Shown here piece by piece: positions 33,130-40,023 of a stretch of 44,231 nt of DNA. The notes below the pieces were generated by a model. It was given only the letters and a program-made list of their open reading frames with translations, was not told the origin of the DNA and ran no database searches. Source of the DNA: a virus. Within the stretch, counting starts at the first letter, position 1. Each line of letters starts with the position of its first letter. Position numbers and translations under genes: made by a program. The DNA is taken from positions 1 to 44,231 of the IMG/VR virus record IMGVR_UViG_3300031692_000006. One strand, 5' to 3'.

Positions 33130-33175
33130 AGTGTGTGTAAGCAAGCTGATTGACAACTTAGATTTTGCACCCGAT

Positions 33176-33213
33176 CCCGCGGGTGGTCGTTTTGTTAATC
33201 CCGCGGGTTTTTT
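33176..33213 (+). terminator. Terminator after the YkgJ-like gene
   Basis: CCCGCGGG (33176-33183) can pair with the second CCCGCGGG (33200-33207) across a 16-nt loop, followed by six T. Confidence 0.65.
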
Positions 33214-33259
33214 CAAACAAAAACAAAATGGTAACATGAAAACGAAAGAGAGGTCAATG

Positions 33260-34906
33260 ATGAAAAAGCAAACAGTAGCATGGTTGACCGCCATTTTTGT
33301 TTGTGCCATTGTGGCACAACTGGCGGGGTGTGGGCCGAACGGGGATCGTCACCCGGAAGACGCCCTTTATATTTATGGCTGGACGAATGGGACGAATGCC
33401 GGGGCTTTTTGTTACGCGGATATACAAGGCAATGTGATTGCAACCGAAGGGCTTGCAATGCCCTACTCTGTGAGTGAACCGGCCTACGTGATTACCGTTA
33501 ACGGCGGCGTCGATTTTGAAGGGGTTGCCGCACCCGGTGAAGAAGATATTGATTGCACGGGCGTCACAGGTGCCGGGGGCTATTGCATGGTAAATGCCCA
33601 TCGAGATCAACGGGAAATAGTGGGGTATAGGGTCTGGCAATATTTGGATATTCACGCCTTAGAAGCGACCGCTGGGACACGAAAACCATCCTTTGCTTAC
33701 GCATCATTGGTAGGTCAGGATAATTACTTCCAAGAATTAGCTTCGATTAGCGGAACGGACGGACAAGTAATTGCACCGGCCGGGGTTGCGATTGTTCCTG
33801 CCGGAACAACAGGCCCGGCTTTCGCCGTGCCCGAAGCGGCGTTAATAAACGGCAATTTTACATCAAGCGAAATTGCCGCCGCAAGCGAAACAACCGTCAA
33901 TCCCCCAACATCGGGGATCGACGTTGTTTCAGTTGATTTGGCAATTCAATCGGGGTATCGGGGACAAGGTTACTCGCACGACGTGAGTAAAGTAATGCCG
34001 ATCAATCTCCAAAGTGCTGATATGTACTTAAAACATGCGAGCCCCTATTTTTACTCGTATATTTTTAAGACCGCCAGCCCGATGCAGATGGACGGCTATA
34101 TCGGACAGGGAATTGTCACAACCGACGCCGTGCCCGATGGCATTTTGACCGATGTATCTGTGATCGCTAATAGTGCCGATGGATATACACACACGGCCCG
34201 GACAAGCTGGTTTTTGCCGGTCGATGATCGGTTGGAAATCTCACAGGAAACATCGGTTGCCGTCTATGATCGGTTTACTCCGTTTGATTCTGAGCCGAAT
34301 ATATGGGATGAGTCACAATATGCGATAACGGTCAAAGATAACTGGTTGGATTTTATTGATCCCAATCTGTATGCCGACCCGAATATTGTGCCCGATCCCA
34401 ACGTATTATTTGATCCGACGAACCCTGATTTATTTAACTTTGATAGTCGATTGAATACGCAAGCACCGAATTTTGAAAGTATAATGATCCCGGAACGGGT
34501 TATAATCGTGCCGATCATTCCAATGAATGCCAGCGATGATACGATTCAAGTTGAATTCGTACCGGACGGACTGGCGTTTGTAATGATGATGAGTGAAGTA
34601 TGGTTGACGGATGATGCAACGTGTGATCTTAACGAGGACGGCATTGTTAACTATCTGGATTGGCAAGCCTTGAATGCGGCTTATCCCAACATGCGAATCC
34701 ATGTTGAGCCGCCCACGCCGCCCACGCCGCCCGTGCTTCCAACCATGGACGAAATCCAATTCGACGACTCCATGACGATCTCAGAATTGTTTATTGTGTA
34801 TCAAAAAATTGGTTTATTAATTGAATGGACAGATGGCGATACCTCAGATTTAGAGGCGTTAAAAGAAGAATGCCTTAATCTGATTGTCGCTAAGCTGTTT
34901 GGATAG
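33260..34906 (+). CDS. Secreted lipoprotein with a dockerin-like repeat (moron candidate)
   Basis: A 548-aa protein starting MKKQTVAWLTAIFVC, ribosome site GAGAGG. It has a clear lipoprotein signal: two Lys, a hydrophobic core and lipobox LAGC with the acylated Cys at about residue 24. The long middle is beta-type, low in charge and rich in Asp-Pro-Asn (DPNLYADPNIVPDPNV). Near the end CDLNEDGIVNYLDWQALNAAY is a dockerin type I / EF-hand-like calcium loop, followed by a Pro-Thr linker (PPTPPTPPV) and a helical end. Such dockerin-tagged secreted proteins are common in Planctomycetota. It would sit on the host surface, and it is flanked by terminators on both sides. A lysogenic conversion or exclusion role is inferred. 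Confidence 0.7.
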   Translation: MKKQTVAWLTAIFVCAIVAQLAGCGPNGDRHPEDALYIYGWTNGTNAGAFCYADIQGNVIATEGLAMPYSVSEPAYVITVNGGVDFEGVAAPGEEDIDCTGVTGAGGYCMVNAHRDQREIVGYRVWQYLDIHALEATAGTRKPSFAYASLVGQDNYFQELASISGTDGQVIAPAGVAIVPAGTTGPAFAVPEAALINGNFTSSEIAAASETTVNPPTSGIDVVSVDLAIQSGYRGQGYSHDVSKVMPINLQSADMYLKHASPYFYSYIFKTASPMQMDGYIGQGIVTTDAVPDGILTDVSVIANSADGYTHTARTSWFLPVDDRLEISQETSVAVYDRFTPFDSEPNIWDESQYAITVKDNWLDFIDPNLYADPNIVPDPNVLFDPTNPDLFNFDSRLNTQAPNFESIMIPERVIIVPIIPMNASDDTIQVEFVPDGLAFVMMMSEVWLTDDATCDLNEDGIVNYLDWQALNAAYPNMRIHVEPPTPPTPPVLPTMDEIQFDDSMTISELFIVYQKIGLLIEWTDGDTSDLEALKEECLNLIVAKLFG

Positions 34907-34930
34907 GATGGTATATGCAGTAAAGGATTG

Positions 34931-35006
34931 CTCCTTCTGCCCCCGCGGGATACAGCCCTGCCCGGTTCACCGCCGGGTTCCTCCTTCTGCCCCGCGGGGG
35001 TCTTTT
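34931..35006 (+). terminator. Compound terminator with a 13-bp direct repeat
   Basis: CTCCTTCTGCCCC occurs at 34931-34943 and again at 34981-34993. A long-range stem pairs CCCCCGCGGG (34940-34949) with CCCGCGGGGG (34991-35000) around an inner CCCGG / CCGGG hairpin, then TCTTTT. It ends the lipoprotein transcript. Confidence 0.6.
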
Positions 35007-35031
35007 AAAAAGTCAATACTATTTCATGTGG

Positions 35032-35080
35032 GCCGTGCGGGCACTCCTTAATCAGTCTAATGCCGTCCGCACGGCTTTTT
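35032..35080 (+). terminator. Hairpin with T-run directly before the pseudopilin (terminator or attenuator)
   Basis: A 9-bp stem GCCGTGCGG (35032-35040) / CCGCACGGC (35067-35075), then five T. The pseudopilin ribosome site begins about 15 nt later and I see no promoter between them. The pseudopilin operon must therefore rely on read-through or a hidden promoter. Confidence 0.6.
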
Positions 35081-35105
35081 CACATATAAAGATCGGAGAG
35101 ATATT

Positions 35106-36020
35106 ATGAAACGAAAAGCATTTACCATCATCGAGTTAATTGTTGTCTTGTCAGTCATTGCCTTATTGGTATCGGCGTTGGCCCCGGCTCTTAACAAAAT
35201 CAAGGAACACGCCCGATCACTGGCCCAGCGGGCACAATTCCGCAATATTGAAATGGGCTTAGAAGGCTGGGCTAATGATCACGATTTTGATTATCCCGAT
35301 TCGAATTTAGAAATCACCGCCAGCGGATCGGTTGTCGGGGCTCAAAAGTTATGCGAGGCCTTATTAGGACGCGATCTACATGGATTCGATCCTAAGAGTT
35401 CATGGAATCCATGGAAAGATCAAAACGACCCGGATATTTACAGCACCACAACAAAGGGACGAATTGAGCCTTATGCCGAAATTACAAAATTACAGGCGTT
35501 TCAATTTGGCCAACTTTGGGCCGATGCAAATCCGGATTCACCCTATCCGGGCAATTGCGATGATCAAGGCAATATCAATTCGGCTTACAAACCTTGTTAT
35601 TTGTTAACCGATCATTTCAAACGGAAATCAATCCGCTTACCGGCCGGGAATTCAGTTCGCATCGGATCACCTATTTTGTATTACAAGGCGAATGATCGTT
35701 TCAAGGCATTGACGACGGCCGCCCCCGCCAGCCAGTCGATTTTCAATTTTACGGATAATGCCCCCTTAATGCAATACGGACAGTTAAACGATGAACCAAA
35801 GAAGCACCCCTTCTACGCGGCTTATACAGCGTCCGGATCACAAAGTAACCCCCGACTATGGGTAGAGGCATTATTGGCCCCGTCCCCGGCTCCTACGGAT
35901 CAAGGCGGGGTTTTAGAGGGCACTCCCTATAACAAAGATTCATTTATTTTGTTGTCGGCCGGGCCGGACGGATTGTACGGAACAAAAGACGATATTTGGA
36001 ACATTTCAGGGAAAAAATGA
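35106..36020 (+). CDS. Type II secretion / type IV pilin-like pseudopilin
   Basis: A 304-aa protein with a GGAGAG ribosome site. The N-terminus MKRKAFTIIELIVVLSVIALL is a textbook prepilin signal: basic leader, A/F-T-x-I-E-L with Glu at +5, then a hydrophobic helix. The body is long for a pseudopilin. It ends in LLSAGPDGLYGTKDDIWN, a GspG-like calcium-loop signature typical of the large pseudopilin families of Planctomycetota and Lentisphaerota. It would be processed by the host prepilin peptidase and inserted in the inner membrane or a pilus. Phage-encoded pilins are unusual. It is first in an operon whose last product is the RAMP-like protein (36017-38307 follow with overlaps). Confidence 0.8.
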   Translation: MKRKAFTIIELIVVLSVIALLVSALAPALNKIKEHARSLAQRAQFRNIEMGLEGWANDHDFDYPDSNLEITASGSVVGAQKLCEALLGRDLHGFDPKSSWNPWKDQNDPDIYSTTTKGRIEPYAEITKLQAFQFGQLWADANPDSPYPGNCDDQGNINSAYKPCYLLTDHFKRKSIRLPAGNSVRIGSPILYYKANDRFKALTTAAPASQSIFNFTDNAPLMQYGQLNDEPKKHPFYAAYTASGSQSNPRLWVEALLAPSPAPTDQGGVLEGTPYNKDSFILLSAGPDGLYGTKDDIWNISGKK

Positions 36021-37683: not shown

Positions 37684-38307
37684 ATGAAAGTTAGACTAAT
37701 CTTGACCGAGTTTCTTTTAGGGACTTTAGCCGGTCAAAAAGAAGTGGCCAAAACCTATATCGCCGGGAAGCACCCTACCGGCGAACCAGTGGCCGATGAA
37801 ATGGAGGAGCTTGAAAAAATGGAAGAACAACTTGAAAATGCTTCCACTATTTTCAGCCGGGACGAAAAAGGCATCCACCTTTGGGATTATCAGATTAAAG
37901 GTTTTTTCAAAGATGCGTGCGGCATGTTGCGGCGGGTTCCTGATACCCGTTCGAGCAAATTAACATCGTACAAAAAAGTGATTGATGGTTTGGTTTTTCC
38001 CGGCCCCCGGAAAATTTATATTCATCACACAGGGGAAACGTCATTTGTTGAACGGCCCTTACGTGCCCAAACGGCACAGGGGGAACGGATCGCACTGGCC
38101 CGCAGTGAAACGGTTCCGGCCGGTTCTTATCTGGACGTGGACATAACCTGTCTTGATCCAAAGTTAGAGCCTTTAGTCATTGAATGGTTAGACTATGGAG
38201 CCTTGCGGGGGCTGGGCCAGTGGCGAAACAGTGGGGCCGGTCGATTTGAATATGAGAGATTAGACCAATCCACTGAAACAAAAAAAACCAAAAAGAAAAA
38301 AGTGTAG
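37684..38307 (+). CDS. RAMP / Cas7-like putative RNA-binding protein
   Basis: A 207-aa protein with AGAAAGAAAGGGATCGT before the ATG. The N-terminal strand (MKVRLILTEFLLGTL) is followed by an acidic insert (35-55), WDYQIKGFFKDACGMLRRV (67-85), which has the position and form of the Cas7/RAMP G-x-L-K-G-x-x-R helix, and SSKLTSYKKVIDGLVF. RPLRAQTAQGERIAL then precedes TVPAGSYLDVDI, similar to the 'P-x-G-x-x-F' strand of RAMPs. A glycine-rich loop (RGLGQW, then RNSGAGRFEYE, 175-191) sits just before the C-terminus. The Lys tail (KKTKKKKV) fits nucleic-acid binding. Homologues occur as unassigned proteins in other phages. No cas gene is nearby. The gene's stop codon is the first unit of the pentamer array. 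The RAMP assignment is by pattern, not by search. Confidence 0.6.
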   Translation: MKVRLILTEFLLGTLAGQKEVAKTYIAGKHPTGEPVADEMEELEKMEEQLENASTIFSRDEKGIHLWDYQIKGFFKDACGMLRRVPDTRSSKLTSYKKVIDGLVFPGPRKIYIHHTGETSFVERPLRAQTAQGERIALARSETVPAGSYLDVDITCLDPKLEPLVIEWLDYGALRGLGQWRNSGAGRFEYERLDQSTETKKTKKKKV

Positions 38308-38775
38308 CAATGGCACAGCATTGCGGGGCGATGGCACGGTATAGTTCTGCCCTGTTTTGCAAAGGCACAGCTTTCCTAAGCACAGCAGTGGCACGGTTGT
38401 GCTTAGCGACGCGAGGCGCCGCATAGCGATACATAGCATAAGATTTTAATAGAAATGTAGCGGCATTGCAAGCCAGAGCTTGGCAATGGTATGGCGGTGC
38501 AACGCAATGGCTTAGTGGTCCATTGCCATACAAAGAAAAGCTGATGCGTAGCAGTGCGAAGCAAAGCCGTGGCATAGTGGTGTAATGTAGTGCAGTGGCA
38601 AAGCGGTGCAAGGCGTTGCGATGGCAAAGCAATGTCAAGCGGAACATGGCATTGTATGGCGAAAGCTTAGCATTTTGTGGCGTGGCAATGGCATAGCTTT
38701 GTGTTGCGATGTAAGGCAGTGGCTCAGTAATGCTTAGTGAAGCAACGGCACAGCATTGCATAGCGATGCCTTGAC
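38305..38775 (+). repeat. Degenerate pentamer array, block A (N-N-G-Y-R units)
   Basis: It can be read by hand as about 90 successive units: roughly 70 of 5 nt and 18 of 6 nt, mean about 5.2. About two thirds end in exactly G-Y-R (mostly GCA or GCG) and most others in G-Y-N; the first two bases of each unit vary. The 6-mers are mainly ATGGCA, GTGGCA or ACGGCA and recur every three to ten units. The array begins at the TAG stop of the RAMP-like gene (TAGCA). There is no longer period and no palindromic repeat, so it is not CRISPR. The open minus-strand frames are a by-product: the complement, R-C-rich every 5 nt, rarely makes stop codons. It is probably transcribed from the upstream operon. 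Confidence 0.8.
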
Positions 38776-38794
38776 AATTTAATAAGCCTACCAA

Positions 38795-38887
38795 TGGGGC
38801 GGCACACGGGCAACTCCTTCTACAAAGATGTGATAGTGAACCTTTGTCACTATCTCATTTCACTTCTGCCCGCCGCCCCAGCTTTTT
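38795..38887 (+). terminator. Nested hairpin separating the two array blocks
   Basis: An outer stem TGGGGCGGC (38795-38803) / GCCGCCCCA (38872-38880) continues with GGGCA (38808-38812) / TGCCC (38867-38871). It encloses an inner 8-bp hairpin GATAGTGA (38832-38839) / TCACTATC (38847-38854). GCTTTTTTA follows. It looks like a large terminator or a structured RNA domain and has no pentamer pattern. Confidence 0.65.
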
Positions 38888-39969
38888 TAAATGCAAATGG
38901 CACAGTTTTGCGTAGTATTGCCAAACATTGCAAAAGTAGTGCATTGCGGAACGAACCATAGCAAAAGCAAAGCACAGTTAAGTTATGCGACGCGAAGGTA
39001 TAGTACAGCATCGGTATGCAATGGCATTGCTGGGTAGTCCGGTGCAAAGGCACAGTGAAGCGGAGCATGGCAAAAGCAATGAGGTGCTTTGCGGCGCCGA
39101 GCACAGCAGTGGCAATGTGATGTATAGTAAGGCATCGTAACGGAATTGCCGCCCCGGGCTGTGCGGGGCATTGTATAGCGAAAGTTTAGCGGAGCTATGT
39201 ATAGCAAAAGCAATGCGGTGCAGGGCTTCGCCGAGGCAAAGCAGTGCAATTCGGAGCAGAGCCGCGGCAATGTGATGTATAGTATAACAAGGCATTGTAG
39301 GGCAATGGCTTTGCATGGCAAACCGGAGCAGTGGCAACGCGTGCCGGTGCATAGTAGCGGCAGAGCGAAGCAGAACAGGGCAAAGGCATAGTATAGCAAG
39401 GCCACGCAAAAGCACAGTGATGCAACCCGGTTCAGAGCAAGGGCAATGAATTGCAGATCAAGGCGATGGTGTAGCAATGCGAGGCAATGTTCAGTTTAAT
39501 AATAGCCGTGGTGTAGCAATGTGAAGCGATGGAAATGTAAAGCAATGTCCGGCAATAGCAATGCGGGGTAATGTGGAGCAGAGCAATTGCATTGCAATGT
39601 GCCGCTAAGCCGAGGCGTTGCAGGGCGGTGCATCGATAAGGTGCTGTAATGTAGAGCAACGCAAAAGCAAAGCATAGCTTAGTTGGCGAAAGCAGAGCGG
39701 TGCATTTCGTCGCGATGGCAGAACGGTACAATGTATATCATAGCAAAAGCAAAGTAACGCGATGTATCTCATAGCTGGGTACCGCAAAGTGACGGCAATG
39801 CGATTCATGTCGTAGCATGGCTATGGCATCGCAAAGCCACGCGAGGCACAGTACAGCAACGGCAATGCAGTGTAACGCAATGTGCCGGAATAGCGACGTA
39901 TTGCACAGCAACGGCATAGTCACGCGACGTATAGCGGTGGCTAAGCAACGCATCGATGCGCTTTGTATC
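38888..39969 (+). repeat. Degenerate pentamer array, block B (N-N-G-Y-R units)
   Basis: About 1.08 kb, by hand about 205 units of the same N-N-G-Y-R type with interspersed 6-mers. Examples are TAGCA, GTGCA, AAGCA, ATGTA and ACGGCA. The pattern is interrupted once by a GC hairpin, GCCCCG (39151-39156) / CGGGGC (39164-39169). It runs to within 12 bp of the terminator at 39981. Units are not copies of each other, so recent tandem duplication does not explain it; the spacing and the G-Y-R positions are what is kept. I see no coding frame I would defend on either strand. Confidence 0.8.
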
Positions 39970-39980
39970 CTTAGTTGACC

Positions 39981-40023
39981 AGGGTAAAGAAGACGACTTT
40001 GTACTTCTTTACCCTTCTTTTTT
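39981..40023 (+). terminator. Strong rho-independent terminator ending the array transcript
   Basis: A perfect 12-bp stem AGGGTAAAGAAG (39981-39992) / CTTCTTTACCCT (40004-40015), an 11-nt loop, then TCTTTTTT. Confidence 0.9.

What the first reader, a model, noticed from the sequence alone, without database searches (positions are those of the whole stretch)
38305..39969. A 1.65-kb non-coding array with a 5-6 nt quasi-period (N-N-G-Y-R units)
Read unit by unit, almost the whole region falls into 5-mers ending in G-Y-R (mostly GCA or GCG), with 6-mers such as ATGGCA or ACGGCA interspersed; the mean is about 5.2 nt over roughly 300 units. The units are not copies of one another: the first two bases vary freely and only spacing and the G-Y-R triplet are kept. 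That argues for selection on geometry, as for a chain of identical binding pockets. Established parallel: TRAP binds NAG triplets separated by 2-3 nt, the same spacing. A second reading is that 2 x 5.2 equals one turn of B-DNA, so a DNA filament is also possible. It takes about 4% of a compact phage genome and is bounded by the RAMP-like stop codon and a strong terminator. I know of no described phage element of this kind.
Basis: partly seen in the sequence, partly recalled or inferred. Interest (0 to 1): 0.95.

Follow-up and report, generated by a model that had tools for sequence, protein, structure and literature searches.

The report
Phage guide-RNA array beside lone RAMP
A bacterial virus carries a long non-coding stretch built from five-letter units next to a gene for a CRISPR-like RNA-binding protein; together they most likely form a simple RNA-guided weapon against rival viruses, of the VIPR kind first described in 2026 but with its own punctuated layout.

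Summary
Lag-5 autocorrelation is 13.6 sd above dinucleotide shuffles, and the strongest lag is 26. The region parses into 321 units of mean 5.18 nt: G-Y-R-N-N pentamers with one hexamer (consensus GCRRNG) every 5-7 units, giving modules of about 26/31/36 nt. The gene that ends where the array begins encodes a 207-aa lone RAMP with the Cas7/Csm3 fold. In 111 of 123 non-redundant relatives from several phyla, a similar array lies within 300 nt of this gene; its hexamer motif reads on the gene's strand in 99 arrays and on the other in none. This matches VIPR (PMC13142463, 2026 preprint): a phage RAMP (Vipr) plus vrRNAs of alternating GGY/NN units that guide it to DNA of competing phages. My detector finds all four vrRNAs of the VIPR phage SUSP1. 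New, or not covered in the text I could read: hexamer punctuation, GYR instead of GGY, a continuous array of hundreds of units, no conserved accessory gene. Target evidence in this family is thin: one convincing 22-nt match.

The parts
37684..38307 (+). vipr-like gene: lone Cas7-fold RAMP, 207 aa, no Pfam or PHROG family
   Evidence: AlphaFold2 pLDDT 85.2, pTM 0.79; all listed PDB fold matches are CRISPR RAMP-type chains or complexes (type VII Cas7, Csm3, Csm4, Cmr, Cas6), best E 1.3e-5 and Z 12.3; 31, 46 and at least 156 relatives found in three searches
38302..38777 (+). array block A: 92 units, G-Y-R-N-N pentamers with hexamers (GCAATG, GCAGTG and similar); first unit overlaps the stop codon of the RAMP gene
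38795..38889 (+). strong hairpin followed by a U tract that interrupts the array (terminator-like, or an inserted palindromic element)
   Evidence: -39.3 kcal/mol, z -5.5 against dinucleotide shuffles; sequence GGGGCGGC...GCCGCCCCAGCTTTTTT
38894..39969 (+). array block B: 206 units with 36 hexamers (GCAAAA, GCGATG, GCAATG, GCAAAG and similar)
39981..40022 (+). intrinsic terminator-like hairpin plus T tract closing the array
   Evidence: -18.7 kcal/mol, z -4.3; sequence

Best explanation
The region is a guide-RNA array for the RAMP protein encoded immediately upstream: a VIPR-type system of a temperate phage. The array is transcribed in the same direction as the gene; copies of the RAMP coat the RNA, one per pentamer, gripping the constant G-Y(-R) and presenting the variable bases. 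Each 5-nt unit reads about 3 nt of target DNA, so a 26-36-nt module (5-7 units closed by a GCRRNG hexamer) specifies roughly 15-22 nt. Bound RNPs would silence genes of competing phages or prophages. Shown here: the periodic array, its module structure, its linkage and strand bias, the RAMP fold, and module turnover in related phages. Shown in the cited preprint for a related type: RNA binding, dsDNA recognition, repression. Inferred for this family: transcription, RNP formation, and the decoding rule.
For: Period and modules. Linkage: array within 300 nt of the gene in 111/123 non-redundant loci (68 3', 32 5', 11 both), hexamer motif on the gene strand 99:0 with 10 ties; in 16 complete or near-complete phage records the array occurs once, beside this gene in the loci of the same phages. 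RAMP fold. Same plan as SUSP1 VIPR: the detector recovers its four vrRNAs; profile alignment of the two protein families runs full length and shares the G-loop G-x-G-x-W-R...GRF (P 3e-4, probability 39%); the SUSP1 protein is PDB 36pp 'SUSP1 Vipr protein'. Information in the variable bases: shared modules keep order with whole-module gain/loss; in four pairs they diverge 3-6% against 18-30% at fourfold sites of the gene. Decoding positions 3-5 contiguously gives the most DNA-like sequence relative to unit-shuffles (z 3-4.3 at order 2-4 with the hexamer), with TAA/TAG depleted in one frame. One L140 module decodes to 22 nt identical to the ribosome-binding site and start of a small gene in phage L158, whose RAMP is 89% identical to L140's; the gene was not found in L140's own 65.6-kb record.
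Against: No target found for the window's own array: one gapped 18-position match in IMG/VR is at chance level at the other positions. Target tests on 1.7-2.5 Mb of related phage DNA, 64 genomes of one genus and 400 of one family are otherwise at noise. The L140 match includes a Shine-Dalgarno/ATG context that recurs in these phages, so its significance is overstated by a random-sequence model, and it did not reappear in the list of the enlarged run, where arrays were re-parsed. No conserved accessory gene, no conserved structured RNA, no excess of terminators after arrays. Profile similarity to known Viprs is weak. Low divergence of shared modules could partly reflect recombination; other pairs show 13-17%.
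Confidence: 0.84

Rival explanations
1. RNA scaffold without guiding: the RAMP polymerises on the array in cis as a TRAP-like filament that regulates its own mRNA, protects RNA or titrates the protein; the variable bases only avoid exact repeats.
For: Geometry is kept across phyla while sequences do not align; array is next to and collinear with the RAMP gene, with a terminator between in only 2 of 32 5'-arrays; few targets found.
Against: Variable bases stay similar in shared modules in several pairs; modules of 5-7 units closed by a fixed hexamer suggest separate messages; the related SUSP1 system is shown in the preprint to be guided (PMC13142463).
Confidence: 0.1
2. DNA element: a phased double-stranded site (2 x 5.2 nt is about one helical turn) bound by a DNA filament or used as a replication/recombination site.
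For: Mean unit 5.18 nt gives 10.36 bp per two units; some of these genes lie near phage replication/recombination genes such as SSB, RecT-like and YqaJ-like.
Against: Motif strand always equals the gene strand, 99:0; the extra base is part of a sequence-specific hexamer; the linked protein has an RNA-binding RAMP fold.
Confidence: 0.03
3. Neutral low-complexity or decaying microsatellite DNA.
For: Simple 5-nt beat, GC-rich units; arrays cannot be aligned between distant phages.
Against: Linked to one gene family in about 90% of 123 loci; module size distribution far from geometric; in four pairs shared modules diverge several-fold less than fourfold sites.
Confidence: 0.02
4. Coding: a minus-strand protein is made.
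For: Open minus-strand frames up to 205 aa overlap the array.
Against: Related arrays differ by 5-nt and whole-module indels, which break frames; arrays of relatives cannot be aligned; long open frames can follow from the periodic composition.
Confidence: 0.01

Closest known systems
VIPR (Viral Interference Programmable Repeat), Vipr + vrRNA; type II of phage SUSP1 (PMC13142463; KT454805)
   Same: Phage-encoded small RAMP with G-loop; adjacent non-coding RNA of pentanucleotide repeats with a constant part and variable NN; array beside the gene, 5' and 3'.
   Different: Here the constant part is G-Y-R rather than GGY; a GCRRNG hexamer every 5-7 units; continuous arrays (up to 206 units per block) instead of separate vrRNAs of 9-16 units with a structured tail; no conserved vap gene; proteins only weakly similar.
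Listonella phage phiHSIC locus (NC_006953)
   Same: Its protein is 31% identical to SUSP1 Vipr and flanking DNA holds GCA-NN type pentamers, an intermediate consensus.
   Different: Short runs, no regular hexamer punctuation.
Cas7/Csm3 backbone subunits of class 1 CRISPR effectors (type VII Cas7, 8yhd; Csm3, 6xn3)
   Same: Fold of the protein (Z 12), G-loop, presumed stacking along a guide RNA.
   Different: No other cas genes among conserved neighbours, no CRISPR repeats, 5-nt rather than 6-nt pitch.
TRAP (trp RNA-binding attenuation protein)
   Same: Regularly spaced short RNA motif bound by identical pockets (own knowledge).
   Different: Unrelated protein fold; about 11 triplets, no variable information-bearing bases (own knowledge).

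Membership tests
VIPR | Small RAMP-fold protein with glycine-rich loop, without other Cas proteins | tested here: met
   (fold); G-loop GLGQWRNSG..GRF near-invariant in 27 relatives; no cas neighbours among recurrent families
VIPR | Homology of the protein to known Vipr proteins | tested here: inconclusive
   Full-length collinear profile alignment with five SUSP1-like proteins, P 3.2e-4 but probability 39%
VIPR | Adjacent RNA of tandem pentamers, constant GGY or a related consensus alternating with variable NN | tested here: met
   At the DNA level: G-Y-R-N-N units; same detector finds SUSP1 vrRNAs
VIPR | Carried mainly by phages and prophages | tested here: met
   Integrase, terminase and head-tail connector in the window; relatives in IMG/VR and in contigs of GTDB genomes
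VIPR | vrRNA is made and binds the protein | not testable with these tools
   needs small-RNA sequencing and pull-down
VIPR | Variable bases specify a DNA target, 3 nt of target per 5-nt unit | tested here: inconclusive
   One convincing 22-nt match, an 18-nt match to L071, target-free signals; other tests at noise
VIPR type II (SUSP1-like) | GGY motif, separate vrRNAs of 9-16 units, neighbouring vap1 gene | tested here: not met
   GYR motif, hexamers, continuous array; no conserved neighbour; so not type II
CRISPR-Cas | Near-identical repeats separating unique spacers, plus cas genes | tested here: not met
TRAP-like attenuation | TRAP-fold protein | tested here: not met
   RAMP fold instead

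The most novel reading that the evidence does not exclude
A VIPR type with its own code: a continuous array punctuated by GCRRNG hexamers, each 26-36-nt module being a separate short guide read as three contiguous target bases per pentamer (no skipped base) plus up to four from the hexamer, working with the RAMP alone and no accessory protein, and spread from Firmicutes to Planctomycetota phages.
Probability: 0.3. Interest if true: 0.78.

Novelty: new variant of a known kind. Interest (0 to 1): 0.62.

Why it matters
RNA guidance by a non-contiguous code in phages was reported only in 2026. This family adds over 100 loci from several phyla with a punctuated array that could hold dozens of guides per phage (about 55 modules in this window), apparently with a single protein. 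If each module is a guide, these are among the most compact multiplexed RNA-guided systems known to me, a natural record of which phages compete, and a direct handle on how RAMP-based guiding preceded CRISPR.

Tried and rejected
(1) Guide-target search with 5-nt target spacing against own genomes and related phages: no signal, and wrong geometry in the light of the preprint; one search also over-masked the target. (2) Skip rules 0-4 and other column choices: only positions 3-5 read contiguously stand out, by a handful of hits. (3) Reading through hexamers with 1-6 wildcards: at best a weak excess at 4. (4) Decoded arrays against GenBank phages, a genus of 64 genomes and a family of 400 genomes: noise. 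(5) Gapped 18-position pattern from the window in IMG/VR: one hit, judged chance. (6) RNA secondary structure of the arrays and terminators after arrays in relatives: no special signal. (7) Rfam, PADLOC, Pfam and PHROGs: no family; NCBIfam only a sub-threshold Csm4 match, E 0.004. (8) Codon register tested by GC slopes: no position behaves like a wobble position, so the stop-codon depletion stays unexplained in detail. (9) The supplement of the preprint (types, figs S16-S19) was not available, so I could not check whether this family is one of its seven types; its 'staggered arrays with overlapping vrRNAs' may be this layout.

Full report
Observation. The 5-nt beat is real and strong: lag-5 identity 0.422 against 0.257 in dinucleotide shuffles (z 13.6), lag 10 z 10.9, but the highest lag is 26 (z 14.0), with 31 and 36 also high. 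A chain model that asks only for G every 5 or 6 nt finds one array in the window, 38302-39969, score 146.8 against at most 9.2 in shuffles. It has 321 units of mean 5.18 nt. A 95-nt hairpin with a U tract at about 38795-38889 divides it into blocks of 92 and 206 units, and a terminator-like hairpin follows at 39981-40022.

Anatomy. Pentamers read G, then C or T (A in some relatives), then mostly A or G, then two nearly free bases. About one unit in six is a hexamer with consensus G-C-R-R-N-G. Across 95 arrays the number of units per module peaks sharply at 5, 6 and 7 (351, 401, 217 cases, where a geometric law predicts 115, 97, 81). Modules are therefore about 26, 31 and 36 nt long, which explains the autocorrelation peaks. 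The hexamer consensus (GCAAAG, GCAATG, GCAACG, GCAAGG the commonest) is shared by phages from different phyla of hosts.

Surroundings. The array begins at the stop codon of a 207-aa gene without Pfam or PHROG assignment. A model built from 27 relatives (pLDDT 85, pTM 0.79) matches CRISPR RAMP-type chains: type VII Cas7 (Foldseek E 1.3e-5, Z 12.3), Csm3, Csm4, Cmr, and lower down Cas6. Relatives: 31 by simple search, 46 in GTDB genomes from Clostridia, Coriobacteriia, Synergistota, Planctomycetota, Verrucomicrobiota and Chloroflexi, and at least 156 in viral contigs. Of 123 non-redundant loci, 111 have an array within 300 nt of the gene: 68 on the 3' side, 32 on the 5' side, 11 on both; some of the rest, such as L020, look like weaker arrays by eye. 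The hexamer motif is on the gene strand in 99 arrays, on the other in none, 10 ties. In 16 complete or near-complete phage records the array occurs once. No neighbour gene is conserved; the frequent ones are general phage genes such as repressors and single-strand binding proteins.

Evolution. Six phages with RAMP genes about 91-93% alike share modules in the same order with whole modules gained or lost. In shared modules of four pairs the variable bases differ by 3-6% while fourfold sites of the RAMP gene differ by 18-30%; in other pairs the variable bases differ by 13-17%. BLAST chooses the similar parts, except in L087/L089 where most of the array aligned, and recombination may contribute. 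Small indels are mostly of 5 nt. This argues that the variable bases carry information and that the array is not coding.

Known system. A literature search found one relevant paper: PMC13142463 (bioRxiv 2026.04.26.720920), which describes VIPR, a phage RAMP (Vipr) with vrRNAs of alternating GGY/NN units. It reports RNA-protein co-purification, dsDNA recognition by the NN bases with one target base skipped (3 nt of target per 5-nt unit), repression, natural targets in competing phages, seven types, and layouts that include 'staggered arrays with overlapping vrRNAs'. I located the SUSP1 locus (KT454805): my detector finds its four vrRNAs and nothing else in the 50 kb searched. Its protein is deposited as PDB 36pp. 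Our family aligns with five SUSP1-like proteins over the full length with weak significance (P 3.2e-4, probability 39%) and shares the glycine loop with WR...GRF.

Decoding. With the known geometry I tested which columns behave as a target. Positions 3-5 of each pentamer read contiguously (with or without the hexamer bases) give the most DNA-like sequence relative to unit-shuffles (best z 4.3); positions 4-5 alone give a smaller gain, and other column choices give less or negative values. TAA and TAG are depleted by about a third in one frame while TAC and TAT are not; the codon register was not confirmed by GC slopes. One L140 module decodes, including its hexamer, to AAGGAGGGCAAACATGACAACG, identical to the ribosome-binding site and start of a 72-aa gene in phage L158, found in one IMG/VR contig. 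L140 and L158 have RAMPs 89% identical. The gene has homologues with 17-20 of 22 matching bases at that site in other close relatives and was not found in L140's own 65.6-kb record. The random-model E of about 2e-7 for this module compares with about 5e-4 for the best of three shuffled sets, but the Shine-Dalgarno context inflates it. A module shared by the L087 group gives an exact 18-nt match in L071. All other searches were at noise, including the window's own modules.

Conclusion. The best reading is a VIPR-type guide array, working with the upstream RAMP against competing phages: fold, linkage, strand and module structure are shown; transcription, RNP formation and targeting are inferred from the published relative. 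It is not type II. It may be one of the other published types, whose details I could not read; hexamer punctuation, GYR motif, continuous array and lack of a conserved accessory gene are the distinguishing features.

Noticed in passing
window 38795-38889: A strong palindromic hairpin with a U tract sits inside the array; it may be a terminator separating two transcripts or an inserted palindromic element.
   Followed up: partly
window 33131-36020: The phage carries a prepilin-like protein with an N-terminal methylation motif (PF07963) and a 591-aa lipoprotein-like protein with a dockerin-like DLNEDGIVNYLDW stretch; such cargo hints at a planctomycete host (inference).
   Followed up: partly
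L010 and L012: Two phages about 93% identical overall have identical RAMP genes and identical aligned array (0/73 fourfold differences, 232 nt), as if the whole module had been exchanged recently.
   Followed up: partly
L028 5640-6230 and L029: Phages 99.9% identical outside the array differ by about 330 nt of array; whole modules are missing in L029 (or collapsed in assembly).
   Followed up: partly
L031 5001-5954: A relative of the RAMP with a C-terminal extension (322 aa) and no detectable array nearby.
   Followed up: no
GU169904.1 91679-92260: A record named Staphylococcus phage SA1 holds a Vipr gene 98.5% identical to those of E. coli Felixounavirus-like phages; the host label is probably wrong.
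   Followed up: no
L353 27615-29235 (phage SUSP1): The four SUSP1 vrRNAs show no hexamer punctuation, unlike the arrays of the present family.
   Followed up: yes
L121 and L124, just 3' of the RAMP gene: Arrays short or scored only as a C chain (108 nt), with about 80-98-nt direct repeats elsewhere in the same loci.
   Followed up: no
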